Shown here: positions 19,918-33,242 of the stretch, piece after piece
Layout: the number at the start of each line of letters is the position of its first letter
How positions within the stretch are numbered: position 1 is the stretch's first letter
From: an uncultured Prevotella sp.
GTDB lineage: Bacteria > Bacteroidota > Bacteroidia > Bacteroidales > Bacteroidaceae
Reading direction: 5' to 3'
Length of the DNA: 46,824 nucleotides
Assembly: GCA_900314995.1 (NCBI GenBank)
Contig: OMXK01000047.1
Coordinates: forward strand, 1-46,824
Made by a program: the position numbers and the translations under genes
The notes under the pieces: generated by a model
Seen by the model: only the letters and a program-made list of their open reading frames with translations
Databases searched by the model: none
What the model was told of the DNA's origin: nothing

Positions 19918-22900
19918 TTAGTCCGTCGGAATATCTTCTTTGGCGATGGTGACGAGTGCTTCATTACTGATATCGGCAGCCGATGCAAGACGGGTATTCT
20001 GACGGAAGATAACCTCGTTGAAGAGAAGTTTCATTTCCGAGCGTCCGCCTTCGGCATGAGAGCCGAAATAGCCTACAAGCGTTTCCTGGGCATCGTCTGC
20101 CAAGTGCATGTTTTGCTGGTGCAGATAGTCTATAAACAGACGGGCGAGTTCTGAAGGTGTATAATCGTCGAACACGAAACGGTCGTTGATGAACTCAGAG
20201 AGCACCGGGAGCTGTTCTTCCACCTCTTTCCATTCTGACGGATTGGCATCGATGATGTAAATGGTCTTGCCATGCTGCGCCAGCATCTCGTCGATGAGTC
20301 TGCGTTCGGCACCGTTCTGAGTCAACGTGGTAAGCAACTGCGAGGCCTGCCATGTCTTAACCGCATCCTTTTCAATAAGACCAATGTCAGAGAGCACGCG
20401 TGTCATCGCCTGACGGAACTCCTTCTGGCCTGTATCGGGATGTCCGATGAAGGCAAAGCAGATGCTGAGGTTCTGGAATGGCACATGCGTAAGTTCGGCA
20501 CGACGACGGTTGAGCTTTATCTGATTAAGTAGGTTCTCCATCTTCTTCTTGGCACTGGCTGCACCAATAAGCCGATCGAAGGCGTGCATCAGTTCCTCAG
20601 TTGAAGCATTGGCCCGTGCCTGATCTCCGGCAATATCCACCAGTGTCAGTGTACGAAGGTCGTCAGGCGAACATTGTCCCATCTCCATCATCGGAGCAAG
20701 ACGTGCGCCTTGGCGCTCCTTGGCCTGCTTGAAGATATTCACCACTGCGCCGGCATTGCCAAACGACTGCGGATTGCGCTGGTCGTAGACGGTGCGGAAG
20801 TAGGCAGCGAGACCTTTCTCGGCACCGTCGTCGAGCCTCATGTCATGCTTCTTCAGCAGATTGCGGAAGATCTGTTCGAGTGCAGCAGGCTCGTAGTCAC
20901 AGAACTCTATTTTACGGAAGCGACGCTCTAACCCAGAGTTGGTCTGCAGGAACTCGTTCATCTCCTTAGTATAGCCGGCAAGAACACAGACAAACTTGCC
21001 TGCATCGGCAGTGAGTCGCTGTAGGAGGGTGTTGATAGCCTCCTGGCCAAAGCCGCCGCCTTCGCCCTTATTGAGCGAATATGCCTCATCAATGAATAGT
21101 ACACCGCCCATGGCTGAGTCGATGACATTGGAGGTCTTGATGGCGGTCTGACCTGTATAGCCGGCCACCAAATCCTTCTCGGTGACCTCGACAAGATGAC
21201 CGCGAGAGAGTACGCCGAGCGAGGTGAGGATATCGGCCATGAGTCTGGCTACGGTAGTCTTGCCCGTACCAGGGTTACCCATAAATATATAATGTGGAGC
21301 CTCACGGTGAACGATTTCCCCCGTCAACTTGGCGCGTGCATCGTCGGCACGGAACGACTCCACCATCTGGCGCATCTGCGTCTTGATGTTATCCAGCCCT
21401 ACCAGCTTATCGAGTTCGGCCAAGGCTTCATCAGCAGACAGCACTTTGCGCTGCTCGAAGGGGATATCCTCGGGTTGTATCGTCTGATAGACTTCGGCCG
21501 TACGTTGTTCCTTGGGCAGTTCACGGATACGGAGCGACAAACGGCCCTTGACAGCCTCAAGCAGTTTTGCCATCTCACCGGCATTGCCCCAGTTCTTGTC
21601 TTTCGTGGCAAGCATCTCATTGACCTTACGGAAGATGACCGACTCAGTATCCGCAGCCAGATGATACCCTTGCCGTTGGGCCATCTGCGTAAAGATCTTC
21701 ACCAGTTCTACAGCAGAGTAGTCATCTATATGGATGCGGTGGGTGATGCGGCGGGCGATACCCTCGTTGACACGGATGAAATTGTCCATCGGTGCAGGAT
21801 AGCCGGCCAGGACCACAGCGAACTTGCCGGCATCGTCCTCCATGCGCTTCATGAGCACTTCGACGGCCTTGGTTGCTTCGGCATCCTTCGTGCCCGCATC
21901 GTTGACGGGGGCGAAACTATAGGCCTCATCGATGAAGAGCAGCTTGCCCATGGCGAGGTCACAGTACTTACCCATATTCTCACCAGCACTATTCTGGTAC
22001 TTGCCTACGATGTCCTTACGCTCACACTCTACGATATCAGGAGAAGAGAGCAGTTTCATCGCATACAGTATCTCACCAAGCTTACGGGCGACGGTCGTCT
22101 TGCCTGTACCAGGATTACCCGTCAGAATGATGTTTAGCTTCATCGTCTGCTGGGTCTGCAGGCCGAGTTCAAGCCGTTCGTCCATATCGGCCTTCTGAGA
22201 GGCTATCTCACGCACGAAGTCCTTGACAGCCTGCATGCCAACAAAGTCTCTGTCAAGCTGTGCCACTATCTGATCGACATCAAGTTCTTTCAAAGCCTCG
22301 GCACCTTCTATATCGGCACGGTTGAAAAGGCGGTCTTCGGTCTTACCTTCTATAAGCAGACGTTCACGGTGGCGCTCCAAGGCACACTCAAAAGTGGACA
22401 TCACCTCACGGGCATTGCCGAAGTTCTTCGTGCGACGCTTGTACATCTTCTCGAAGAACTTGTCGATGTGGGACTCGGCATCTGCATCGAGACCATAGCC
22501 CTCCTTCTCAAGTTTCTTGCGGAAGATATTGGTAAGCTGTTCGGGGGTATAGTCTGAGAACTCCATACGTTTATTGAAACGGGAGGCAATGCCGGAGTTG
22601 GCATCGAAGAAGTCGAGCATCTCCTTGGTATATCCTGCTATGATACAGACGAATTTTCCGCGCAGCTCCTCGACGGGCTTGAGGAGGGTGTTGATAGCCT
22701 CACGCCCATAGTCACTACCCTCACCCGAAGAGAGGGTATAAGCCTCGTCAATGAAAAGCACGCCACCCATGGCGGAATCAACCACCTGACGTGTCTTCGG
22801 AGCAGTGCCACCCACAAACTTAGCCACCAGATCCTCACGGGTAACCTCAATCAGCTGGCCACCCGGCAGTATGCCCAACGCACTGAGCATGTCGGCAAAG

Positions 22901-23968
22901 ATACGGGCTATCGTGGTTTTACCCGTACCTGGATTACCGAGGAACACATACTGATCCTTGAATGGCGGCAGTGCTTTCGGATCGTTCTTCTCAAGACGGT
23001 ACTGCTTGATATTCTCGACGATGCTGTGCATCTCGCGCTTCACGTCGTCGATGCCCACGAAGGCATCCAGGCGGCTGAGGATCTCGTCGGGGGTCTGCCT
23101 TCTCCACCGCCTCGTAGCCGTTGCGGAAGGATATCTTACGGTGCTTGACCAAGTAGCGGAAATAGCCAAGGAGCTTCTTCTCGGCCTCGCCCTCAACGGA
23201 GAAGCCGAGGCGCAACAGCTCCCGCTCGCAGATGGCCAGCAACTCCTGCGGGCTACAGTCGTGGAGCTCGAACACCTGGGCAAAGCGGCTGCGTCCGCTC
23301 TTCTTTTTCTGGAAATAGTATTCTATCTGGTTCTTCTCACCCTCGAAAATAACGATCGGATAGGTGTGCCAGTCAGCAGAGAGATCGCGCTCCCAGTCTT
23401 CCATCATGCTGAAGAGACGATCGATGGGTGTCAGATGCTCTGTATCCGTCATCAACAGGTGGGCATTGTCGATGACGATCAGACGTCCTCTCAACTCCTC
23501 GAGTGTCTTCTCGTTGAGGGTGCCTATCCACTGATTGTACTCCGAGGCATCAACCTTCTTGATGCGGGGATGGGTAATAATCCCGTTAACGAGGAACAAC
23601 TGATGAATCAGACTGATGAGGAAGGTCTTACCCGTGCCACTGTTACCAAGTACGAGCATGTCCATCTCGGGGCGCTGGCGCAGCCGGCCCTCGCGCTTCG
23701 AGGCGGTATAGAAAGCCACCAGGCGCTGTACCTCCTCGATGGCGTCGTGCTTGCCTACGGCCTCGGCGAGGAGGGCGGCAGGATCAACGGCGGAAAGAGC
23801 CGCGGGCGCGGCAGGTGCAGCCTGGGATGCTGGCTGTGCAGGAGCGACCTGCGGCATCGCCGGGGCGGCCTGCGGCGCTGTGTTCACATCGGGCTGGCGT
23901 GTTCCGCAGTGGGTGCAGAACCTTGCATTGTCGGCCAGTTCATGCTGGCATTTGATACATCTTTTCAT
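19918..23968 (-). CDS. giant zinc-ribbon protein with five AAA+ (CbxX/CfxQ-type) modules, frameshifted
   Basis: Read through one extra base at 23089-23093, this gene encodes 1349 residues. Order: a zinc ribbon (CIKCQHELADNARFCTHCG, residues 4-22), an Ala/Pro/Gln linker (30-60), then AAA module 1 with Walker A GNSGTGKT (108) and an unusual Walker B VIDNAH; modules 2, 3 and 4 of the CbxX/CfxQ type, each with Walker A GNPGTGKTT (344, 617, 897) and Walker B LFIDEAY; and module 5, degenerate (GHPDTGQKE near 1175). CbxX-type ATPases remodel protein complexes, as in rubisco activation and ESX secretion; five in one chain is rare. The zinc ribbon suggests a cytoplasmic location. It is the last gene of the TMEM43 cluster. 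As the sequence stands, two separate frames (22991-23968 and 19918-23283) would be called. Confidence 0.85.
23089..23093 (-). other. frameshift site in the five-AAA gene
   Basis: The N-terminal frame reads ...NGYEAVEKADP and then runs out of the conserved frame; the other frame continues ...TPDEILSRLDAFVGIDDVKREM, a standard start of a CbxX AAA domain. Removing one base from the run of five C (minus strand) joins the two exactly. Either an assembly indel or a real +1 mutation. Confidence 0.85.
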
Positions 23969-23990
23969 ATTCGTAAGGTTTTAAGTTTCA

Positions 23991-25490
23991 TTAGAACGTG
24001 ACGTTTTCGAAATATCCCCTCAAGGGCTCACCCTGTGGCAGACGGTCGAAACGCTCCTTGACGGCCTCCTGAGAGGTTTCGCGGCCATTAATGGTGCCCT
24101 CGCTGACCTCACCATAGATCTCGAGCGCAGTAAACTCCTCCTTTTTCTTTCCATCCTCGAAAACCCACACGCGGGTGTAGTAGGAAGGACCGCCGGCAGG
24201 GCCTGAGAGCTTCAGGTAGTAAGCGCCGTCTTTATAGGCAGACGAGAACTTCAGGCGCTCCGTCTCGACGCCGACGAGCGAGAACTTGCCGTCCTTGCGG
24301 GTGAAAAGAGCGCCATTATGGTCGAGGCTGTCGCGCATCAGGATCCACTCGTTATCCAAGTCGACATCGGTATGGGCCCACTTCGAAAGACGGATGTCCT
24401 TATGCTCATGGGGATCGTCGGCGAGGAAGAGACGACGCATCTCGGCGATGTCCTTCTTCCATACGGGTATCTCCTCATCGACCATGTTGTGGTAGGTTTC
24501 ATAGAGCACCTTGACGAGCTGTCCGCCACGCAGGAAGAACATGCCGACGGCAGTACTCTCGGGCGCGCCTCGCTCAAAACAGATCTCCAGGCCCTTGGGA
24601 CCCTCGAAAACCGCCACGGGGGCATGGCCCCCATACTCGCCTTCGTCGTCGGCATTCCACGTGGTGCCGTACTGCTCATCATACATCCCCAGTTCCTCGT
24701 TGACATAGTACTTGTCGCCGTCGATGAGCACATCCAGGCCCAGGCCGACGGGGCTGTCGCCATAGAAATTGTCCTTGGGCGCATTCTTCCACTGGCCCTT
24801 GAACTGGAGAACGCACCAGAGATAGCGCCCATCGATGGTGGCAACCTGATGCATGCGATCCACCTTCATGCCATACTTCTTCTCCAGTTGGCTGACAATG
24901 GCTGCCGGCAGCGGCTTGGGATTGCTCCACGAATCTTCGTCGAACTCCACCGGCAGGAGCTTGCGCGAGGCGAGGTAGCTGTCGGTGACGATGACCGTGC
25001 CGAAATTGTAGCCCCACTCCTCCTTCACCTTCTCCTTGGGATTAGCAAAATCGAAGCGGGCACAGAGCGAAGGTATCTCCGGGCGATGACGCTCGCCCGT
25101 GCCGGGACGGTTGCCGTCGGGATCCTCGAGGACCTCGTCGATGAACTTGATCTTGAAGAACTTGTCGCCCATGAGCATGTTGGTGTATGCGGTCTTGTTG
25201 CGACGGAACATCTCCTGCAGGGTCCAGAGCTGGTGGGACGTCTCGAAATAGTCATCGTTGTCATCCTTCTTCTGCGGCTCTTCAAGATCCGTCCAGTAGA
25301 GCATCAGGCCATACTGTTTGTCCTGCCCCATGAGGAACATCGGCATCGGGGTGGTGTCGTTCTCCTCGATGATGCTGTCGATGACTGCTGCCACCGAGTC
25401 CTGCGCCGTAACGGCCTCAATCTTACCCTTGTTCTTGCAACTGACCACTATGGTCATCGCACAAACGGCCAAAAGCAATATCTTCTTCAT
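23991..25490 (-). CDS. lipoprotein of unknown function in the AAA cluster
   Basis: A 499-residue predicted lipoprotein; the start at 25490 gives MKKILLLAVCAMTIVVSC with the lipobox Cys at 18. The six-codon upstream extension would spoil the signal peptide. The mature protein is acidic, of mixed alpha/beta character, with many Trp and Tyr and no recognised motif. The region around YYTRVWVFEDGKKKEEFTAL near the C-terminus looks like a beta-sandwich. It lies between the two AAA genes with gaps of 19 and 22 bases, so a joint function is likely but unknown. Confidence 0.8.
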   Translation of the reverse strand: MKKILLLAVCAMTIVVSCKNKGKIEAVTAQDSVAAVIDSIIEENDTTPMPMFLMGQDKQYGLMLYWTDLEEPQKKDDNDDYFETSHQLWTLQEMFRRNKTAYTNMLMGDKFFKIKFIDEVLEDPDGNRPGTGERHRPEIPSLCARFDFANPKEKVKEEWGYNFGTVIVTDSYLASRKLLPVEFDEDSWSNPKPLPAAIVSQLEKKYGMKVDRMHQVATIDGRYLWCVLQFKGQWKNAPKDNFYGDSPVGLGLDVLIDGDKYYVNEELGMYDEQYGTTWNADDEGEYGGHAPVAVFEGPKGLEICFERGAPESTAVGMFFLRGGQLVKVLYETYHNMVDEEIPVWKKDIAEMRRLFLADDPHEHKDIRLSKWAHTDVDLDNEWILMRDSLDHNGALFTRKDGKFSLVGVETERLKFSSAYKDGAYYLKLSGPAGGPSYYTRVWVFEDGKKKEEFTALEIYGEVSEGTINGRETSQEAVKERFDRLPQGEPLRGYFENVTF

Positions 25491-25509
25491 ATCTCCAACC
25501 TCTAACAAA

Positions 25510-26541
25510 CTATTTCCCTATATTCGACTTCGAAGCAAAACCCTCCTGAAGATCGGAAACGGTCAATTCCGTCAGTTCCCGCTCGTTCAGATTTGTCCTT
25601 CCCTCCAGACGGTTAGCTTGCGCCTGAATACTCTTCTCAAAGACGTTGCGCGCATAGCGGGCATTACCGAAGTTGCGGTCTTTATGGGCCACGGCATAGT
25701 CGAGCTGCTCTCTAAGATAGTTCTCGGCATCGGGCGCCAACGTGTATTGGTTCTTCTTCATATACATCTTGAAGATGTCCGTCAGTTCCGCACTTGTATA
25801 GTCGGGGAAGTCGATATAGCGGTTGAAGCGCGACTGCAGTCCGGGGTTGGAGTCGATGAAGCGTTGCATCTCGTTCTTATAGCCGGCGATGATCACCACG
25901 AGACTGTCGCGATAGTCCTCCATACGCTTCAGTAGCGTGGAGATGGCCTCCTGACCGTAGTCCTCACCGTTGCCTCCCTCAGGCACAAGAGCATAGGCCT
26001 CGTCGATGAAGAGCACGCCATGGATGGCATGCTGCACCACAGTATCGGTCTTCAGCGCCGTCTGTCCCAGGTACTTCGCCACAAGACCGCTACGGTCGGT
26101 CTCGACGGTATGTCCTTTCTTCAGCACACCTAGGTCCTTGTAGATACGGCCGATGATACGGGCCACAGTAGTCTTACCAGTACCGGGGGAACCGTAGAAC
26201 ACCAGGTGGTAGGACACCTTCGCCGTCTTCAGTCCCTTCGCCTCGCGCTGTTTCTGGAGCTTGACGAAATTCGCCAGCGAGCGTACTTCCTTTTTCACCT
26301 CGCCCAGTCCTATCAGGTCATCGAGTTCCTTGTAGGGGTCGCCCTGAAGGGGCTCATTCACGACGACGGAGTCTTTCTTCTCAACCTTTTCCTGCTGTTC
26401 CGTCTGCTCTGTATTGTCATTATCGTCCTTGTTGTCGTCATCGTCGGTACACATGCCCACGACAAACAACAAGCCGATAAAGCAGAGGGTCATGCAACCG
26501 CAACCTTTGAGCGTCTTGTCAAATATTTGCTTAAAATCCAT
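25510..26541 (-). CDS. membrane-anchored CbxX/CfxQ-type AAA+ ATPase
   Basis: A 343-residue ATPase. An N-terminal hydrophobic segment (CMTLCFIGLLFVVGM, about residues 16-31) is followed by a very acidic Asp/Asn/Glu linker and one full CbxX module: Walker A GSPGTGKTT (near 114), pore-loop region DRSGLVAKYLGQT, Walker B GVLFIDEAYAL, sensor IIAGYKNEM and the Arg-finger region PGLQSRFNRYIDF. It closely parallels modules 2 and 4 of the giant AAA protein two genes downstream. The Cys in GCGCM might look like a lipobox, but an N-terminal signal-anchor with the ATPase on the cytoplasmic or the periplasmic side cannot be decided by eye; ATP use argues for the cytoplasm. Confidence 0.9.
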   Translation of the reverse strand: MDFKQIFDKTLKGCGCMTLCFIGLLFVVGMCTDDDDNKDDNDNTEQTEQQEKVEKKDSVVVNEPLQGDPYKELDDLIGLGEVKKEVRSLANFVKLQKQREAKGLKTAKVSYHLVFYGSPGTGKTTVARIIGRIYKDLGVLKKGHTVETDRSGLVAKYLGQTALKTDTVVQHAIHGVLFIDEAYALVPEGGNGEDYGQEAISTLLKRMEDYRDSLVVIIAGYKNEMQRFIDSNPGLQSRFNRYIDFPDYTSAELTDIFKMYMKKNQYTLAPDAENYLREQLDYAVAHKDRNFGNARYARNVFEKSIQAQANRLEGRTNLNERELTELTVSDLQEGFASKSNIGK

Positions 26542-26569
26542 ATATCATCAATCCTTTTATAAAGACAGT

Positions 26570-27673
26570 TTATTCCGCATAATCTGCAAGCTTTAGCTTT
26601 CGTTCGACAGGCCGCCAGTAGGGTGTAACGGATACTGTGTCCCCCAGCATCTTCTCGGCCTCGTTCCAAGCCTCATCCGAGATGGCCTTCCCATTCTTCG
26701 TCTGCGCAAGGTGGATAGTCTCCTGCTCTTCCGAGAAGATGTTGAACTTGTGCTCCATGAAGTACTCATCGACAGGAAGGCTGTTTTTCACGATGGTAAA
26801 AGCCTTGCGGTCTTCACCCGTTCCATAATAGCCGCTGAAGCCCACGGCCCCCTTGTAGAAGTCGATCTCACTACGGGCATCGGAGCAGGCCAGCAGGCGC
26901 ACCGAGTCACCGACGACGGAATAAACGCCCTGAAAATCCTGTCCCTCGTCGCCCTTCACCCACACCTCAGGGTGCCCGTCGCTATCGACATCGACAAAGG
27001 TATAAGCTATGATCCGGATATCATCTGTACCCTTGGAGAAAATCACATAGGCTTCCGACTCCATCTGCCCGACATATTTATTGATGTCGAAAGTTTTCTC
27101 GAATGCCATATAACGGGCATATCTCTTCATCTCCGCCAGCAGATCCATGCCCTGCATAGACTCAAAGAAGATGTCGGCGACACGCCACTGACCATCCTCC
27201 ACCCGCATCAGCCAGCGCATGGGGACGCCCCCGATGGTGACGGCATCCTTGACGAGGAATCGCACATCAGCCGTGCCGTTGGGCAGCAGCTTGACGCTGA
27301 CGCTATCGGCACTGACACGTCCCTCATAGCAGTCGAAGGTCCAGGCATCGAGCGGTCCCTCGTCACCGAAGTCGAAGAAACCGCCACACTCACAGTCCTT
27401 ATCGACAGCCCGTACATCAGCCAGTGCCTGCTGCCACTCCCTGGTGGCAAAGCGCTCATCGAGGGAGGGCATGCCTTCCTTGTAGTGCTGGCGCATATAG
27501 TCGAGATAGTCATAGACGGCATCTACCTGTCTGACAACAGCCTCGACCGTATTGAGCGTGTCGGGCACCTCAAATACCTGTGTGGAGTCGGCATCCGCAG
27601 CACCGTCCTGAGCCTTATTGCCACAGGCCACCCACGTCAAGGCTACGACGACAAAGAACATCAGTTTCTTCAT
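26570..27673 (-). CDS. lipoprotein with DUF3828-like N-terminal half
   Basis: A 367-residue predicted lipoprotein (MKKLMFFVVVALTWVAC, lipobox Cys 17). The N-terminal half (about 40-190) ends in RWLMRVEDGQWRVADIFFE, resembling the NTF2-like fold of DUF3828 lipoproteins and similar to the next gene upstream. The C-terminal half contains FVDVDSDGHPEVWVKGDEG, an Asp-rich turn reminiscent of VCBS/FG-GAP calcium loops. Function unknown. It sits 28 bases before the AAA ATPase gene in the same run of genes. Confidence 0.8.
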   Translation of the reverse strand: MKKLMFFVVVALTWVACGNKAQDGAADADSTQVFEVPDTLNTVEAVVRQVDAVYDYLDYMRQHYKEGMPSLDERFATREWQQALADVRAVDKDCECGGFFDFGDEGPLDAWTFDCYEGRVSADSVSVKLLPNGTADVRFLVKDAVTIGGVPMRWLMRVEDGQWRVADIFFESMQGMDLLAEMKRYARYMAFEKTFDINKYVGQMESEAYVIFSKGTDDIRIIAYTFVDVDSDGHPEVWVKGDEGQDFQGVYSVVGDSVRLLACSDARSEIDFYKGAVGFSGYYGTGEDRKAFTIVKNSLPVDEYFMEHKFNIFSEEQETIHLAQTKNGKAISDEAWNEAEKMLGDTVSVTPYWRPVERKLKLADYAE

Positions 27674-27684
27674 ACGCGTACATT

Positions 27685-28725
27685 CTATTTCTCTATATAC
27701 TTCTCCATGTTGCTCAGTATGCTGCCTGTGGCATCATGGCTCTTCTCAAGCCAGTCATGGATGCGCCACTCAGACTTCTCATACTCCAATAAGAGTATCT
27801 CCTTGGAGGAGAATCCTCCCTCTGTCTCCTTCAGCGTGACGACGGCCTCAGCAGTAGTACCCGTGGTAAGCTCTACCTTGATATTCTGCACCATCAAGGG
27901 TGTTTCCAGACCACCTGTCCAGTGATTGTCATCGATGAAGAAACAGGTTTCCACCGATGGCTGCTTACCGTCTTTCTCATTCACTTTATTATAGACCTCG
28001 TTCCAATACTGGGTGTAGTACTTTTTGTCGAGGTCGAAGGGGGAGAGCCCGGACCCCTCGGCAAAGGTCTCGTTGACGGCCTGGATGTATTTCTTGATCT
28101 GACGTGCCACGGCCTCTTCCGTCCAGTCTTCATCGGGTGCCACGAGCACCTCACCCGTCTGCGCGCCGAGATAGCTCTTCATCCAGTCGAGATAGTTACC
28201 CTCAGGGAAGGCCTCTTCGTCGATCCAGTTGTGGATTTTCCACTGTCCGCCCTCCTGCAGCATCACGAGGTGCTGGCGCGCCTTGACACCACGTTTGTCG
28301 ATGAGCCGGAACTTGACCTCCACCCTACCCTTCATGATCAGCTCCACGGCGACGGAATCGACGGTCTCAGCCACACTGATGCCGGGGAACCATCGCCAGC
28401 CTTCGTCGCTGAAGGTCTCTTCCGGCGACGTGGCGTTGCGTGCCTTCTCATAGACGTCATCCTCCAATTCAAGGAACTCCCTGGAACAGAAGAGATTGTC
28501 GAGTTCACGCGTATTGATACCTTCGCCAGAGGCATCCATCTCGCGCAACTTGGCATAGACAGTATTCAACTGCGCCTCTATGTCCTTCTGAATATCTTCC
28601 TCGGCAACGGTGGCGATGCTGTCCGTCACCGTCGATTCGGCACTGGCGTTATTGGCTCCCGTCTTGTTGCCGCAGGCTGCCATCATCAGCACAGCCTCAG
28701 CGAGCACGAAAAACTGTTTCTTCAT
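27685..28725 (-). CDS. lipoprotein with two DUF3828-like repeats
   Basis: A 346-residue predicted lipoprotein (MKKQFFVLAEAVLMMAAC, lipobox Cys 18, then GNKTG as in its neighbour GNKAQ). Two copies of one domain are visible: each begins with a helix (IQKDIEAQLNTVYAKL; VARQIKKYIQAVNETF) and ends with a Trp strand (GGQWKIHNWIDE; KSEWRIHDWLEK). The Trp-Lys/Arg-Ile-His/Asp strand is typical of DUF3828/NTF2-like lipoproteins. The neighbour downstream is a probable relative, so this part of the cluster may have grown by duplication. Confidence 0.8.
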   Translation of the reverse strand: MKKQFFVLAEAVLMMAACGNKTGANNASAESTVTDSIATVAEEDIQKDIEAQLNTVYAKLREMDASGEGINTRELDNLFCSREFLELEDDVYEKARNATSPEETFSDEGWRWFPGISVAETVDSVAVELIMKGRVEVKFRLIDKRGVKARQHLVMLQEGGQWKIHNWIDEEAFPEGNYLDWMKSYLGAQTGEVLVAPDEDWTEEAVARQIKKYIQAVNETFAEGSGLSPFDLDKKYYTQYWNEVYNKVNEKDGKQPSVETCFFIDDNHWTGGLETPLMVQNIKVELTTGTTAEAVVTLKETEGGFSSKEILLLEYEKSEWRIHDWLEKSHDATGSILSNMEKYIEK

Positions 28726-28736
28726 AAAGTTCCCTT

Positions 28737-29927
28737 CTATTTCTCCTTTACAAACTTACTGCCGTTCCAGGTGAAACGCCTGGCAATCTTGCCCGACGAC
28801 AGGTGACTGTTGATGACAAACGTTTTTCCCTGACGGGGTAGTTCGTGCGTCACACCAGTGCAGCCGGGAGGTATTTCTAAATCGAGTCCGAGTTCTGGCT
28901 CGGAGGCTATCTTCAACTTGCGTGTGGCATTGTCATACATATAGAAGATGACACCCGTGATCTCTGTCATAACGGGCCTTCCTGCCTGGAAGTAGTCATT
29001 GCTCACGGCTAAGAGTTTATGCTTCCCGTCGGCACAGTTCCAGTAGCAGCACTCGATGACCTGACGGCTCTCATCGTCTTTCGACTCATAGCCCATGTAG
29101 CCGTTGCGCACGTCGACGATGATCTCGTCGCCAGGCATCTGCTTCATACCGTTACGATACAGATCCCAACTCTGCTGCACGCCACTGAAGCCCTCGCCCA
29201 TATCCTCCTGTGAGAGGATGGCCGAGACGAAGTCCTTGATATTGGGCTGCGCACCCTTGGTCTTGACTACGATGCCCGTGTCAGTATCGTCAACAACCTC
29301 TGTCTTTGAGAAGACAGGCTTCATACCGTTCCATGTGAACGTGTGGCGAAGATGCCCTTCTTCGTTATACATGTCGATGAGCAGATCTTTCCCTTGCTTC
29401 GGCAGACTCACAAAATAGGGTTCCTCCACTGTCCACGGTCTGAAGCCTCCCAGTATATCCGGCTCGGGGATGAGTGCCTTTTTCTGCGGGTCGTAGTCGT
29501 AGAAGCATACAAATTCGATGAAGGGGTCAGTGGGATCACCCATGCAGATAGCCAACAGCTTATGACCGTTGGTGCGATTCCAGTAGCAGGCAGACATATA
29601 CTCGCCATCGGTTCCGGCATCGCTCACTTTCGCATAGCCGTTCTTGCCGTCAACGATTACCTTAAGGGCCGTCTCCTCATCGAGTACCACCTTCGACAGT
29701 CCTTTCTCCATGGCATCCCTCACGCTGGAGACCATCCATGTGGGCCACGTCTGGTCGAAGCGCTCCAGCATGATGCCGAAGCTACCGTTTGCCACATTGT
29801 CGATGGTCTTGGTCTTCCAGCCCTTTTCAATATCTTCGAGTGATACCGTCTCCTGTGCCCAGGCTGAACCAAGCGACAGGCATAACAATAATAATACTGT
29901 CAATAATGATTTTTTCTGCATCTTCAC
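28737..29927 (-). CDS. secreted tandem-repeat protein of unknown function
   Basis: A 396-residue protein with a Sec signal peptide (MKMQKKSLLTVLLLLCLSLGSAWA). The mature part consists of two halves of about 175 residues that repeat each other: GKNGYAKV ... ACYWNRTNGHKLLAICMGD in the first and VRNGYMGY ... CCYWNCADGKHKLLAVSND in the second, each ending in a TFTWNG / RFTWNG strand. No known family is recognised. Start at 29927 or two codons later. Twelve bases separate it from the next lipoprotein gene. Confidence 0.8.
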   Translation of the reverse strand: MKMQKKSLLTVLLLLCLSLGSAWAQETVSLEDIEKGWKTKTIDNVANGSFGIMLERFDQTWPTWMVSSVRDAMEKGLSKVVLDEETALKVIVDGKNGYAKVSDAGTDGEYMSACYWNRTNGHKLLAICMGDPTDPFIEFVCFYDYDPQKKALIPEPDILGGFRPWTVEEPYFVSLPKQGKDLLIDMYNEEGHLRHTFTWNGMKPVFSKTEVVDDTDTGIVVKTKGAQPNIKDFVSAILSQEDMGEGFSGVQQSWDLYRNGMKQMPGDEIIVDVRNGYMGYESKDDESRQVIECCYWNCADGKHKLLAVSNDYFQAGRPVMTEITGVIFYMYDNATRKLKIASEPELGLDLEIPPGCTGVTHELPRQGKTFVINSHLSSGKIARRFTWNGSKFVKEK

Positions 29928-29956
29928 TAATCACTCATTACTAATCACTAAAAAAC

Positions 29957-31545
29957 TCATTTCGGCCCTGTCCCACGAGACTGGATATTCACGTCGAGCG
30001 GATTCGGCGAGAACCAATTCTTGGCGCCTGACTGGTCTGCCATATCAATGGTACCAAGGTTCTCCCCATATAGAACGTATTGTCGAGACCGAACAGCGGT
30101 GCATCGCCGTCGTTGGCGAAGAAGCGGCAATCCTGGAACGATACCCCCTCACAGCCCGTAGCCTCAATCAGCGTGAACTCACGGTTGTGGAAGAAATCGT
30201 TCCTGTCGAACCTGACAGCCATGCAACTACGCATCTCCATGATGCCGTATGTGCAATCATGTATGTTAGAGTCTATCAAACCGAAGTCGCTTGTCTCAAT
30301 CAGTTCCAGACCGTAAGTTCCGCAACCGTAGAGGTCACAGTCCTTCACCACATTGTGCTGGCCGCCTCTCATGCCGACCACGCCACCAGAGCAATTGCCG
30401 CCCTCAGTATGGCCGATGATCAGATTGATCAGCTGGCAGTGATCGCAGTTCACGAAGTTGAAGCAGAAGCTATAGCGCGGATCTACCTCGATGCTGGCGT
30501 TCTTGCCGCCCTTGATGGTTAGGCCGCTGAAGTTGACGAGAGTCAGCTGACGTCCGTCAAACACATCCTCGCTCACCACCAGCGGTTCCTTCGAGATAAT
30601 GGCTGTTGCATCCGATGACCAGCGTCTGCCTGGACGATTCTTGAAATGGACGTCGTTCTCCAGGATACGCGACAAGTTCAGATGTACGTTGTCGGGGATA
30701 TATACCGTTCTGTTAGGACGAAGGTTGGCGATGAGTTGCTCTTCATTCTCCACCACATAGACCTCTTCACCGTCAATGATCTCTGGGCCGCGGCCATCGT
30801 CAGCCAGTCCACCGGGGAAGTCCTCGGCAGTGATCTCCCGCGCTGGCAGGCCATTGAAGCGATCTCTGTGGATCCTGTCTTTCTCGGGCACAGTCTCCTC
30901 ACTCTTGATGAGCTGGATATTGGTCTCCTCGATGACATTCAGTTTCACCTGATTGTTATCAGCCACGGGCTTATACCACGACTGTTTTCCGAAATGGTCC
31001 TTCAGATCCTGCGACTGGAATTTCCAGCCGTGACGGGCAAGTATCTCATTACGCATCAGGCGCAGCTCCGACTTGTTAAACCGTCCAAGATAGGCAGGAC
31101 TGAGCAACATATTGGTGAGTATGTCGCTCACGGGCTGCTGTTCTGCCCACTCCTCCTGAGCCGTGCAGTTCTCCACGTTGTCAGGCGTCAGCACAAGTGT
31201 GTGACAGATTTCACCTTTAGGCTTGCGGATGGCAATGAAGTTCATGCCGTCCTTGCGGATATAGTCGACATCCCACCCCAGTTCGCCGCGCACCGGCAAC
31301 ACAGCGTCGGGTGCGTCTGCGGAGAGACAGTACGGGTACTTGCCTCCTTCTACGGGTGAGAGACTAAAAGAGAAATTGCCCGGATGTGACCAGATGCCAC
31401 TCATGTGTACGACACCGAACTCATCGATGGTGGCGGTATAAAGCACCATGCCATCCCACCACTTCGAACCGTCCTTGATAGTCTGGGCTTCCATGCCTAG
31501 CACCGCCATCAAGCCAATTATTGCAGTTAAGACTATCCTCCTCAT
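29957..31545 (-). CDS. secreted YARHG / right-handed beta-helix protein, frameshifted near its end
   Basis: A secreted protein of about 529 residues when repaired. The signal peptide (MRRIVLTAIIGLMAVLGMEA) is followed by a beta-rich domain, then RNEILARHGWKF (near residue 167), the YARHG motif of a small envelope domain, and from about 270 a right-handed beta-helix of pectate-lyase type (repeats such as NVVKDCDLYGCGTYGLELIE). After TFYMG the frame is lost: as written it stops at 29989 with a nonsense tail, whereas the other frame gives ENLGTIDMADQSGAKNWF and ends at 29957. One missing G in the run at 30064-30067 explains this. Function unknown; possibly binds or cuts glycans. Confidence 0.8.
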
Positions 31546-31557
31546 ATTATCAATTTT

Positions 31558-31680
31558 TCATTCCAGTCCTCCCCAGGTGCCACGTATCTGGCGACAACCT
31601 GTATAGAGCGACGGACAGTTGAACACCTGATACTGCTCGTGACCAGGCTCTAGTATTACTAAATATTTTGCTGTCTTCAT
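31558..31680 (-). CDS. micro-protein between the TMEM43 and YARHG genes (40 aa)
   Basis: An ATG frame of 40 codons starting MKTAKYLVILEPGHEQYQVF, with two Cys and a Gly/Trp-rich end. It exactly fills the 157-base gap between two cluster genes (22 bases after TMEM43, 12 before the YARHG gene) on the same strand, and its composition is protein-like. No family is recognised, and it is short enough that chance is not excluded. Confidence 0.5.
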   Translation of the reverse strand: MKTAKYLVILEPGHEQYQVFNCPSLYTGCRQIRGTWGGLE

Positions 31681-31702
31681 CACACAAACTGTGAACAACG
31701 AC

Positions 31703-33112
31703 TTACTTCTGCGGCACTGGTTCAGTCTTAGGCTGACCGTACTTCGAGGCCAAGTCCTTCAGTTTGTCCTTGCCCTTGAAAGCGAACACCCATACCAGGA
31801 AGCCCGCAAGTACCAGGAGCGAGATACCCAGCAACGGACGATAGAACAGCCATGCAATGGCGATGACGATCAGTGACCATGCCACACCGATAACCGTGCA
31901 TACGATACCGACACCCCAGCCGAAGATACCAGCGATGAAAGGTACGACCTTGAGGATTGTCGTCAGGAAGCCGAAGATACCCTTCAGACCGCCAATCACG
32001 ATCAGAATACCGAAGATACGCAGAGCCCATGTCCACATATTGTTTGCACTCTGGGCATCTTCAATGATCTCGTCACCGGTCTTCTTACCCATCACGAGGG
32101 TCTGGAAGCGCTTGCCGTTCTTCGCCTTGTAGGGCTTGAAGGTATCACCATCGACCACGGCCATCACGGTCACCTTGGCTGGCACGATCTTCTCGAAGGT
32201 GACACGAACGTCACCCACCTCAGGAGAGCCAGGCACACGACCGAAGTAGAGCACATTGCTGGCCTGGTGGATATACTGCAGGTCTTTCTTGTTCTCAGCA
32301 TTCTCCATCGCCTTGCTGATAGAGTCATTCACGGCCTGCAGCGAGTCGAGCCTTGCCTTGACAGAATCAGGCAGCAAAGCCTTTATCGAATCGGGGATAG
32401 CAGGCTGTGCAGGCTGCTGGACAGGCTGCTGTGCCTGCTGCGTACTCTTCTGTACCCCGTAGAAACGCTCATAGGCGGCCTGGGTACTCTTGTCGAACTG
32501 CTTCAGCAGATCCTCTGAGATGGCCAAATCCAGTTCCTCGTTTGAAGAGATGCTGTGAATCAACGACTCCGACAGTTTATAAGCTCCCCACGACACATTC
32601 TCAGCATACTGCTCGGCATCCTCAAAGGTGGCCAGCACCATGTTCTTCTTCTGATAGGCAGGATCCTTGAATTGAGCCGACTCAACAGGGCGTCTCACCC
32701 ACTCCTTGCTGTAAGTGTAGGTCGTGGTGGTCACTTCCTTACCGCCCAACTTGTCCTCGCTCTTGCTCGACTCATGCTCCACCCACTGGTAGTACTCTAC
32801 CGTACGGCTGAGGGCGATAGCCTTCGCACCAATGCCAAACTGGTTGTCAACAAGTGAATCCTCTGTCGTAGCCATAGCCGTACCACAAATCAGTTCGCCG
32901 TCCAGCGAAGCATCTTTCTTGTTGGGGTTTTCCATCTCGACATAGGCACTGCCTGCCTCCTCGAGCATCTTCTCGGTCTTCACGGCGCGACCTTCGTTCC
33001 ACCACAACAGTGCTGTACCTGCAATAAACATCAGGAAGCCTGAGCCTATTGCCTTGAATGAGTTCCCTACTCGGGTTCCATAACCCGTCGTTGTTACTTC
33101 TTGATAAGCCAT
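31703..33112 (-). CDS. TMEM43-family membrane protein
   Basis: A 469-residue integral membrane protein. The N-terminus (GNSFKAIGSGFLMFIAGTALLWWNEGRAV) has the Trp-Asn-Glu-Gly-Arg signature of the TMEM43/LUMA family (DUF1625), which occurs from bacteria to animals. One helix at about 22-41, a large extracytoplasmic domain (about 45-345) with a Gln/Pro insert near 225-240, and three or four helices near the C-terminus (350-450) match the family plan. Its function in bacteria is unknown. It is the first gene after a promoter with an operator-like array, so it probably leads the cluster that ends with the five-AAA gene. Confidence 0.9.
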   Translation of the reverse strand: MAYQEVTTTGYGTRVGNSFKAIGSGFLMFIAGTALLWWNEGRAVKTEKMLEEAGSAYVEMENPNKKDASLDGELICGTAMATTEDSLVDNQFGIGAKAIALSRTVEYYQWVEHESSKSEDKLGGKEVTTTTYTYSKEWVRRPVESAQFKDPAYQKKNMVLATFEDAEQYAENVSWGAYKLSESLIHSISSNEELDLAISEDLLKQFDKSTQAAYERFYGVQKSTQQAQQPVQQPAQPAIPDSIKALLPDSVKARLDSLQAVNDSISKAMENAENKKDLQYIHQASNVLYFGRVPGSPEVGDVRVTFEKIVPAKVTVMAVVDGDTFKPYKAKNGKRFQTLVMGKKTGDEIIEDAQSANNMWTWALRIFGILIVIGGLKGIFGFLTTILKVVPFIAGIFGWGVGIVCTVIGVAWSLIVIAIAWLFYRPLLGISLLVLAGFLVWVFAFKGKDKLKDLASKYGQPKTEPVPQK

Positions 33113-33174: not shown

Positions 33175-33242
33175 CAAAGATACGATTTTTTTTAGAAAAT
33201 GCCCTATCATTTTCTAACAAATATTTGTCATTTTCTAACAAA
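33175..33242 (-). promoter_or_regulatory. TMEM43 cluster promoter with operator-like repeats
   Basis: TATCTTTG (33175-33182, minus strand) is the -7 box; there is no good -33. Upstream are three copies of CATTTTCTAA: a perfect inverted pair (33192-33201 and 33208-33217, 6-base spacer) and a third copy at 33229-33238, extending to a 14-base direct repeat CATTTTCTAACAAA with a period of 21 bases. The spacing of two helical turns suggests cooperative binding by a dimeric regulator. Confidence 0.7.

What the first reader, a model, noticed from the sequence alone, without database searches (positions are those of the whole stretch)
19918..33112. TMEM43 / CbxX AAA+ / lipoprotein cluster as a candidate undescribed envelope system
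Eight same-strand genes and a micro-ORF, with short gaps (11-28 bp where both gene ends are intact), join a TMEM43-family membrane protein, secreted YARHG/beta-helix and tandem-repeat proteins, three lipoproteins, a membrane-anchored CbxX AAA+ ATPase and a five-module AAA+ protein with a zinc ribbon. A single promoter with an operator-like array precedes it. Seen directly: gene content, order and motifs. Known: CbxX-type ATPases act as assembly or activation chaperones; TMEM43 function in bacteria is open. Inferred: the ATPases energise or remodel an envelope assembly built by the TMEM43 protein and the lipoproteins.
Basis: partly seen in the sequence, partly recalled or inferred. Interest (0 to 1): 0.8.

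Follow-up and report, generated by a model that had tools for sequence, protein, structure and literature searches.

The report
Rumen TMEM43-CbxX envelope gene cluster
In Prevotella-type bacteria, many of them from ruminant guts, a relative of the human membrane protein TMEM43 is repeatedly encoded beside a membrane-anchored ATPase and a set of exported proteins, which points to an undescribed cell-envelope system.

Summary
TMEM43 is patchy: 11 of 60 genomes of the genus, 35 of 301 of the family, 1 of 345 in a phylum draw (the window's own). Across 103 distinct TMEM43 loci, a one-TM CbxX ATPase (here CbxXm) lies within 5.2 kb in 38 and lipoprotein C in 55, always on the same strand. CbxXm also co-occurs with TMEM43 when unlinked: 12 of 14 CbxXm-positive family genomes carry TMEM43, against 22 of 286 others (p=5e-11, uncorrected for phylogeny). 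The rest is modular cargo. Here the cluster is partly decayed: the micro-ORF is the tail of a lost DUF6935 gene, and two genes carry frame-breaking gaps (25 and 86 bp) against relatives. The five-module ATPase recurs in only three other loci, one cut by its contig end. Most likely the anchored ATPase remodels a TMEM43-lipoprotein inner-membrane assembly. One oddity stands out: CbxXm's anchor has the charge pattern of a protein whose body lies outside the cytoplasm (46 of 47 sequences), although the ATPase motifs are kept. Function is unproven.

The parts
31703..33112 (-). TMEM43-family inner-membrane protein, 469 aa (N-terminal TM, large middle domain, C-terminal hydrophobic region)
   Evidence: PF07787, E 2.4e-67; alignment A1; hydropathy
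31558..31680 (-). micro-ORF, 40 aa: remnant C-terminus of a DUF6935-type protein
   Evidence: 94% over 33 aa to L020 3891-4712, 85% to L050 2151-2978; DUF6935 in the L050 protein
29989..31545 (-). YARHG / right-handed beta-helix protein with a signal-like start; 25-bp frame-breaking gap near 30064 relative to L020
   Evidence: PF13308, PF13229
28737..29921 (-). protein of two related repeats, signal-like start
   Evidence: no Pfam family over cut-off; both halves match one stretch of L016
27685..28725 (-). lipoprotein A (DUF3828 below cut-off)
   Evidence: relatives
26570..27673 (-). lipoprotein B
   Evidence: PG1828 lipoprotein model below cut-off; relatives
25510..26541 (-). CbxXm: one-TM CbxX-type AAA+ ATPase
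   Evidence: AAA + AAA_lid_6; Walker A/B and SRF arginine 47 of 47; 38 of 103 TMEM43 loci
23991..25490 (-). lipoprotein C: beta-rich, no assigned fold
   Evidence: no Pfam; 55 of 103 TMEM43 loci; model pLDDT 86, pTM 0.80; no PDB match with E <= 0.001
19918..23968 (-). zinc-ribbon five-module CbxX ATPase, broken here by an 86-bp gap near 23095; intact relatives of 1367 and 1368 aa
33175..33238 (-). repeat array TTAGAAAAT (two direct copies 21 bp apart, one inverted) and a TATCTTTG promoter-like element
   Evidence: TAnnTTTG as the Bacteroidota -7 element is recalled

Best explanation
An accessory envelope system. TMEM43 sits in the inner membrane with its large domain in the periplasm, where it would organise or be bound by exported partners, above all lipoprotein C. 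A membrane-anchored CbxX-type AAA+ ATPase forms a ring at the same membrane and uses ATP to assemble, remodel or dismantle the TMEM43 assembly or its partners, as CbxX-type ATPases do for other complexes. The other exported proteins (YARHG/beta-helix, repeat protein, lipoproteins A/B, DUF6935, and elsewhere a nucleoside-hydrolase/P-loop protein) are exchangeable cargo or sensors. The five-module ATPase is an optional cytosolic extra. Shown here: gene content, conservation, linkage, co-occurrence in trans and intact ATPase motifs. Inferred: physical complex, direction of action, TMEM43 topology in bacteria (transferred from fly and human work), export of the partners (by eye from their N-termini) and the substrate.
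For: CbxXm lies within 5.2 kb of TMEM43 in 38 of 103 distinct loci (36 of the 78 with at least 8 kb held downstream), same strand 38 of 38; lipoprotein C in 55 of 103, same strand 55 of 55. Spacings fit operons: TMEM43 and CbxXm are 3 bp apart in L070 and 28 bp in L066, and TMEM43 often overlaps the next gene by 4 bp. Gene order is shuffled (CbxXm upstream of TMEM43 in L066, L072, L076) and flanking genes differ between loci. In 300 family genomes, 12 of 14 CbxXm-positive genomes have TMEM43 against 22 of 286 others; in 9 of the 12 the two lie on different contigs. Genus sample: 7 of 14 against 3 of 45, p 8e-4; lipoprotein C 7 of 9 against 3 of 50, p 1e-5. Eight of 8 TMEM43 genomes that I picked by locus, 2 of them without CbxXm in the locus, carry a CbxXm-type gene at 63-78% identity. 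Catalytic residues 47 of 47. Fly/human TMEM43: termini cytoplasmic, loop in the ER lumen (PMC9307560, passages).
Against: 21 of 84 loci with TMEM43 of at least 65% identity have none of CbxXm, lipoprotein C or the nucleoside hydrolase in the stretch held (some are cut by contig ends; L120 holds a short CbxXm piece); none of 19 more distant TMEM43 loci has CbxXm. Distances of CbxXm and TMEM43 correlate (r 0.65) only within the range of neighbouring control genes (dagK 0.36, miaA 0.53, ExbB 0.78). In the genus sample 7 of 14 CbxXm-positive genomes lack TMEM43, so CbxXm can occur without it; at 13 of 23 sites away from TMEM43 it is paired instead with a small membrane protein, F59. The Fisher tests are not corrected for phylogeny. 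The anchor charge pattern argues against a cytosolic ATPase body. The TMEM43 model was poor (pLDDT 56).
Confidence: 0.5

Rival explanations
1. Accessory hot spot: TMEM43, CbxXm and the exported proteins collect in the same variable islands but do not form one machine.
For: Highly variable content; 21 of 84 closer loci have none of the three commonest partners; co-divergence within the range of control genes; decayed genes in this window; one much-used site upstream of miaA.
Against: Same strand in all 38 CbxXm loci and operon-like spacing in most; several unrelated sites; co-occurrence on different contigs.
Confidence: 0.25
2. Extracytoplasmic ATPase: CbxXm is inserted N-in/C-out so that its AAA+ ring works in the periplasm with the exported partners, using nucleotide present there.
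For: Net charge is higher before than after the anchor in 46 of 47 CbxXm sequences, as in TonB and both ExbD proteins of this window (their N-in topology is recalled). AAA domains are cysteine-poor: 22 of 55 have none against 0 of 40 homologues. Where CbxXm is missing beside TMEM43, proteins with signal-like starts and an intact P-loop (17 of 17 long, 10 of 10 short ORFs, duplicates included) often stand in: 15 loci, 1 shared with CbxXm, p 6.5e-4. 5'-nucleotidases with signal-like starts sit at 15 loci.
Against: No free ATP is known in the bacterial periplasm (recalled). Cysteine loss and charge bias may each reflect one ancestral event. The near-exclusivity may reflect clade structure. No topology predictor was run.
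Confidence: 0.15
3. Anti-phage defence module of the IetAS type.
For: PADLOC IetA models match CbxXm at 2.8e-14 and the five-module protein at 7e-26.
Against: Far below the curated cut-off of the anti-phage ATPase model (44.6 and 70.9 against 510 bits); the other PADLOC hits of the two ATPases are further ATPase/P-loop models, and the only hit among the other proteins is a marginal JetC match of lipoprotein B (E 0.008); no partner protease among the nine proteins.
Confidence: 0.03

Closest known systems
TMEM43/LUMA of animals (PF07787)
   Same: Family model over cut-off; hydrophobic N-terminal segment, large middle domain, hydrophobic C-terminal region
   Different: In animals an ER/nuclear-envelope protein, also described as a cation channel (passages) and as a contact-site factor (search listing only)
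EccA of type VII secretion (CbxX-type AAA+)
   Same: CbxX ATPase encoded with a membrane protein and exported proteins
   Different: CbxXm scores 257 bits against a cut-off of 467, has its own TM anchor, and no ESX membrane component was found among the nine scanned cluster proteins
CbbX/CfxQ RuBisCO activase and SpoVK
   Same: With EccA the nearest single-module families by score
   Different: CbxXm 237 and 301 bits against cut-offs of 459 and 423; no RuBisCO or other sporulation family among the nine scanned proteins
Ser/Thr kinase-FHA-PP2C locus with a ~1100-aa zinc-ribbon multi-CbxX ATPase (same genome, C29)
   Same: Zinc ribbon plus several CbxX modules; 31-37% identical to the five-module protein in the matches
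   Different: Separate locus, common in the genus, no TMEM43 in the stretches read
Membrane-anchored AAA+ remodellers (FtsH, Msp1, YME1L; recalled, listing)
   Same: AAA+ ring tethered to a membrane
   Different: Different AAA family; no protease domain found in CbxXm; charge pattern of the anchor points to the other side

Membership tests
TMEM43 (PF07787) | Family model above curated cut-off | tested here: met
   227.4 bits against 23.3
TMEM43 (PF07787) | Termini cytoplasmic, large loop on the lumenal side | not testable with these tools
   Shown for fly and human proteins (PMC9307560 passages); the bacterial model is too poor
CbbX/CfxQ activase | NCBIfam TIGR02880 above cut-off | tested here: not met
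   CbxXm 237 against 459 bits; the five-module protein exceeds it (554) only as the sum of four stretches
SpoVK | NCBIfam TIGR02881 above cut-off | tested here: not met
   CbxXm 301 against 423; the five-module protein exceeds it (629) only as the sum of five stretches
Type VII secretion EccA | TIGR03922 above cut-off | tested here: not met
   CbxXm 257 against 467; the five-module protein exceeds it (573) only as the sum of four stretches
Type VII secretion EccA | ESX membrane core encoded nearby | tested here: not met
   No ESX membrane family among the nine cluster proteins
IetAS defence | Curated ATPase model above cut-off, with a partner protease | tested here: not met
   44.6 and 70.9 against 510 bits; no partner hit
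CbxX-type AAA+ superfamily | Walker A, Walker B, arginine finger, AAA_lid_6 | tested here: met
   Motifs 47 of 47 sequences; PF17866 in CbxXm

The most novel reading that the evidence does not exclude
CbxXm is an ATP-dependent AAA+ machine that works outside the cytoplasm: its ring lies in the periplasm with TMEM43's large domain and the exported lipoproteins, and TMEM43 (described as a channel in animals) or another route supplies nucleotide, which the neighbouring exported 5'-nucleotidases and nucleoside hydrolases clear. That would be a periplasmic ATP-driven remodelling system.
Probability: 0.12. Interest if true: 0.95.

Novelty: categorically new. Interest (0 to 1): 0.62.

Why it matters
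A TMEM43 variant causes a severe inherited heart disease and the protein's molecular mechanism is called unclear; the same paper notes bacterial homologous domains (PMC9307560, passages). None of the papers listed by my searches (most lists were capped and subscription journals are mostly not held) was about a bacterial TMEM43 operon. A conserved bacterial partner ATPase and lipoprotein give a simple setting in which to find what a TMEM43 protein does. If the anchored ATPase really faces the periplasm, the rule that bacterial ATPases do not work there would need revision. Both points can be tested in cultured isolates such as Xylanibacter ruminicola Ga6B6, in which TMEM43 and CbxXm are 3 bp apart (L070).

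Tried and rejected
Co-divergence (Mantel) test: within the range of control genes, so not used as support. First TMEM43 structure model (9 sequences): pLDDT 56, not searched. Lipoprotein C model: good, but no PDB match with E <= 0.001; no function assigned. VanZ resemblance of F59 by eye: no Pfam hit at E <= 0.05, dropped. Alphaproteobacterial plasmid TMEM43 (6 plasmid records): 2 of the 6 neighbourhoods read (Ruegeria, Methylobacterium); no CbxX gene is annotated there, but hypothetical genes follow TMEM43 in both and were not searched. IetA defence reading rejected. PDB search with the P-loop lipoprotein: nothing. PDB search with TMEM43: only chance-level hits. My first linkage count (36 of 103) used a greedy ORF caller that lost genes to opposite-strand ORFs (seen through) and counted L049's zinc-ribbon ATPase as CbxXm; it was replaced by tblastn counts (38 of 103). 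The tables of charge and cysteine, of spacing and of flanking genes still rest on the ORFs that were called. One search lists stop codons inside two matches; I first took this for gene loss, but in L124 the match runs past the end of an open 335-aa ORF, so I dropped it. Of 112 loci mapped, 9 were duplicates and were dropped. One TMEM43 gene split over two contigs (L023, L024) counts as two loci. A paper search on periplasmic AAA+ ATPases listed two reviews, neither opened.
Full report
What is there. On the - strand of the window, between an ExbB/ExbD/TonB region upstream and an ABC-transporter/GntR region downstream, lie TMEM43, a micro-ORF, a YARHG/beta-helix protein, a two-repeat protein with a signal-like start, lipoproteins A and B, a one-TM CbxX-type AAA+ ATPase (CbxXm), lipoprotein C and a zinc-ribbon multi-CbxX ATPase. 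Intact gaps are 11, 11, 28, 19 and 22 bp. Signal peptides and lipoprotein signals were judged by eye.

What is broken. The micro-ORF is the last part of a DUF6935-type protein that is whole in L020 and L050. Against L020, the YARHG gene lacks 25 bp near 30064; against L060, the large ATPase lacks 86 bp near 23095; both shift the frame. Relatives of the large ATPase are open over 1367 aa (L060) and 1368 aa (L124). Whether the gaps are real or assembly errors cannot be told here. TMEM43, the repeat protein, CbxXm and the three lipoproteins are open in this genome.

How widespread is it. TMEM43 occurs in 11 of 60 genomes of the genus, 35 of 301 of the family in 8 of 30 genera and 1 of 345 in a phylum draw; each count includes this genome, the last consists of it alone. 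A whole-collection scan reported 385 relatives and kept the best 80, named Prevotella, Prevotellaceae, Xylanibacter, Bacteroidaceae or Bacteroidales apart from one 'uncultured bacterium'; by my reading of the record titles 58 of 80 carry ruminant-project, ruminant-host or 'ruminicola' names. Sampling of this group is biased to ruminants.

Linkage. I mapped 112 TMEM43 loci: 11 from 10 genomes of the genus sample, 80 from the scan, 20 from the family sample (20 of its 34 TMEM43-positive genomes other than this one) and the window. Nine were duplicates, leaving 103; one gene split over two contigs counts twice. By tblastn, CbxXm (at least 60% identity over half its length) is present in 38 of 103, always on the same strand and within 5.2 kb; among the 78 loci with at least 8 kb held downstream, 36. 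Lipoprotein C: 55 of 103; YARHG 31; repeat protein 25; lipoprotein A 12; lipoprotein B 7; 5'-nucleotidase 15; nucleoside-hydrolase/P-loop protein 15; DUF6935 6; zinc-ribbon ATPase 4; F59 4. All 38 CbxXm loci have TMEM43 of at least 65% identity (38 of 84); none of the 19 more distant loci has it. Order changes (CbxXm first in L066, L072, L076) and so do the flanking genes. Of the 84 closer loci, 21 hold none of CbxXm, lipoprotein C or the hydrolase at these thresholds, some being cut by contig ends.

Co-occurrence without linkage. In 300 family genomes other than this one, CbxXm (E <= 1e-100) is in 14 and TMEM43 in 34; 12 have both, against 22 of the 286 without CbxXm (Fisher p 5e-11). In 9 of the 12 the two genes are on different contigs. 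In 59 genus genomes the same test gives 7 of 14 against 3 of 45 (p 8e-4), and lipoprotein C gives 7 of 9 against 3 of 50 (p 1e-5; one of the nine, G001, is a weak match). Relatedness inflates these values. Seven genus genomes have CbxXm without TMEM43 at these thresholds. Eight TMEM43 genomes picked by locus (L060, L070, L071, L074, L077, L079, L118, L124) each hold a CbxXm-type gene at 63-78% identity; in L071 it lies right behind TMEM43, where my ORF caller had missed it.

CbxXm elsewhere. Of 23 CbxXm-type loci fetched away from TMEM43, 13 have a small hydrophobic protein, F59, directly before the ATPase: L030-L035 (6 of 12) and L157-L162, L166 (7 of 11; L163 is cut at the contig end). Parts of the listing were cut from view, around L036 above all. 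F59 also occurs within TMEM43 clusters L049, L060, L086 and L124, directly before CbxXm in L060 and L124. It has no Pfam match at E <= 0.05. So CbxXm has a second, possibly older, membrane partner. Outside the family, 7 of 294 other class genomes hold a match at E <= 1e-75, at 49-56% identity; the ORF starts read there, one perhaps cut, show no comparable N-terminal anchor.

The five-module ATPase. It is not the common multi-CbxX protein of the genus: that one (open frames of 1101-1136 aa in 19 of 60 genomes by my count of the listing, the window's own copy left out) sits, in the stretches read, with a Ser/Thr kinase, zinc-ribbon proteins, an FHA protein and a PP2C phosphatase (families run on L039 only; layout) and is 31-37% identical in those matches. 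The TMEM43-linked form is in 4 of 103 loci (WIN, L049 cut by the contig end, L060, L124), and its N-terminal module in 2 of 301 family genomes, one of them this one and the other at 32% identity.

The topology puzzle. In 46 of 47 CbxXm sequences (35 linked to TMEM43, 12 not) the 15 residues before the anchor are more positive than the 15 after it (40 linked ORFs, duplicates included, are listed). TonB and both ExbD proteins of this window show the same bias; they are recalled as N-in/C-out. The exception is L038, a 730-aa homologue. AAA domains of CbxXm hold no cysteine in 22 of 55, against 0 of 40 other CbxX domains. Walker A lysine, Walker B DE and the SRF arginine are kept in 47 of 47, so ATP use is expected. 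Either the charge rule misleads here, or the ATPase works outside the cytoplasm. I hold the first to be more likely because no ATP pool is known in the periplasm (recalled).

P-loop proteins with signal-like starts. Fifteen TMEM43 loci carry a 632-651-aa protein with a weak nucleoside-hydrolase domain (E 1.4e-4, below Pfam's cut-off) and a P-loop, with or without a ~313-aa lipoprotein-like protein holding a P-loop; the motif is intact in 17 of 17 and 10 of 10 ORFs (duplicates included). Only one locus, L087, has both this protein and CbxXm by tblastn (expected 6.8 of 84; p 6.5e-4). This may reflect clade structure. In L058 and L067 5'-nucleotidases lie inside the cluster, between TMEM43 and lipoprotein C.

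Lipoprotein C. From 46 sequences AlphaFold2 gives a confident, beta-rich model (pLDDT 86, pTM 0.80); no PDB chain matches with E <= 0.001.

Regulation. The array before TMEM43 is rare and shared only with L086 (2 of 101 loci examined), where the direct copies keep the 21-bp spacing and the second copy starts 35 bp before a TAnnTTTG element, as here. A pair of direct repeats at two helical turns would suit a LytTR-type regulator; that is a recalled analogy, not a test.

Literature. Topology of fly and human TMEM43 and the mention of bacterial homologous domains: PMC9307560 (passages). TMEM43 as a cation channel: PMC11059273 (passages; it reports extracellular termini in one study, unlike PMC9307560). 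Searches listed no paper on a bacterial TMEM43 operon; one search listed no paper that holds the word CbxX. Lists were capped and subscription journals are mostly not held.

Verdict. Observation confirmed; interpretation partly supported. A conserved TMEM43-CbxX-lipoprotein association, undescribed as far as my searches reach, is well supported; its mechanism is not. I file the system as categorically new because, apart from the generic ATPase fold, it met no tested defining feature of a known system, although TMEM43 and several of the other parts belong to known protein families.

Noticed in passing
L079 11431-14282; L021, L049, L086, L087 and others: Nucleoside-hydrolase-like proteins with signal-like starts and an intact P-loop, in some loci followed by a lipoprotein-like protein with its own P-loop, behind TMEM43 in 15 of 103 loci; P-loop proteins outside the cytoplasm would be odd.
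   Followed up: partly
L030-L035, L157-L162, L166: F59, a small uncharacterised hydrophobic protein, is encoded directly before CbxXm-type ATPases at 13 of 23 sites away from TMEM43.
   Followed up: partly
L039 2990-11536 (own genome C29) and L040-L046: Conserved locus: zinc-ribbon protein, Ser/Thr kinase, ~1100-aa zinc-ribbon multi-CbxX ATPase, zinc-ribbon/FHA protein and PP2C phosphatase (families run on L039 only).
   Followed up: partly
window 33192-33238 and L086 upstream of TMEM43: Rare repeat TTAGAAAAT, two direct copies 21 bp apart (plus one inverted copy here), 35 bp before a TAnnTTTG element; absent before the other 99 of 101 TMEM43 genes examined.
   Followed up: partly
L059 2984-6305, L070, L071 and others: DUF2207 membrane protein, a 69-aa protein and a 5'-nucleotidase directly upstream of TMEM43.
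   Followed up: partly
phylum draw: PF07787 was found in none of the 344 other genomes of the phylum draw, yet in 34 of 300 others of the family: a strikingly narrow distribution within the phylum; the source of the gene was not traced.
   Followed up: no
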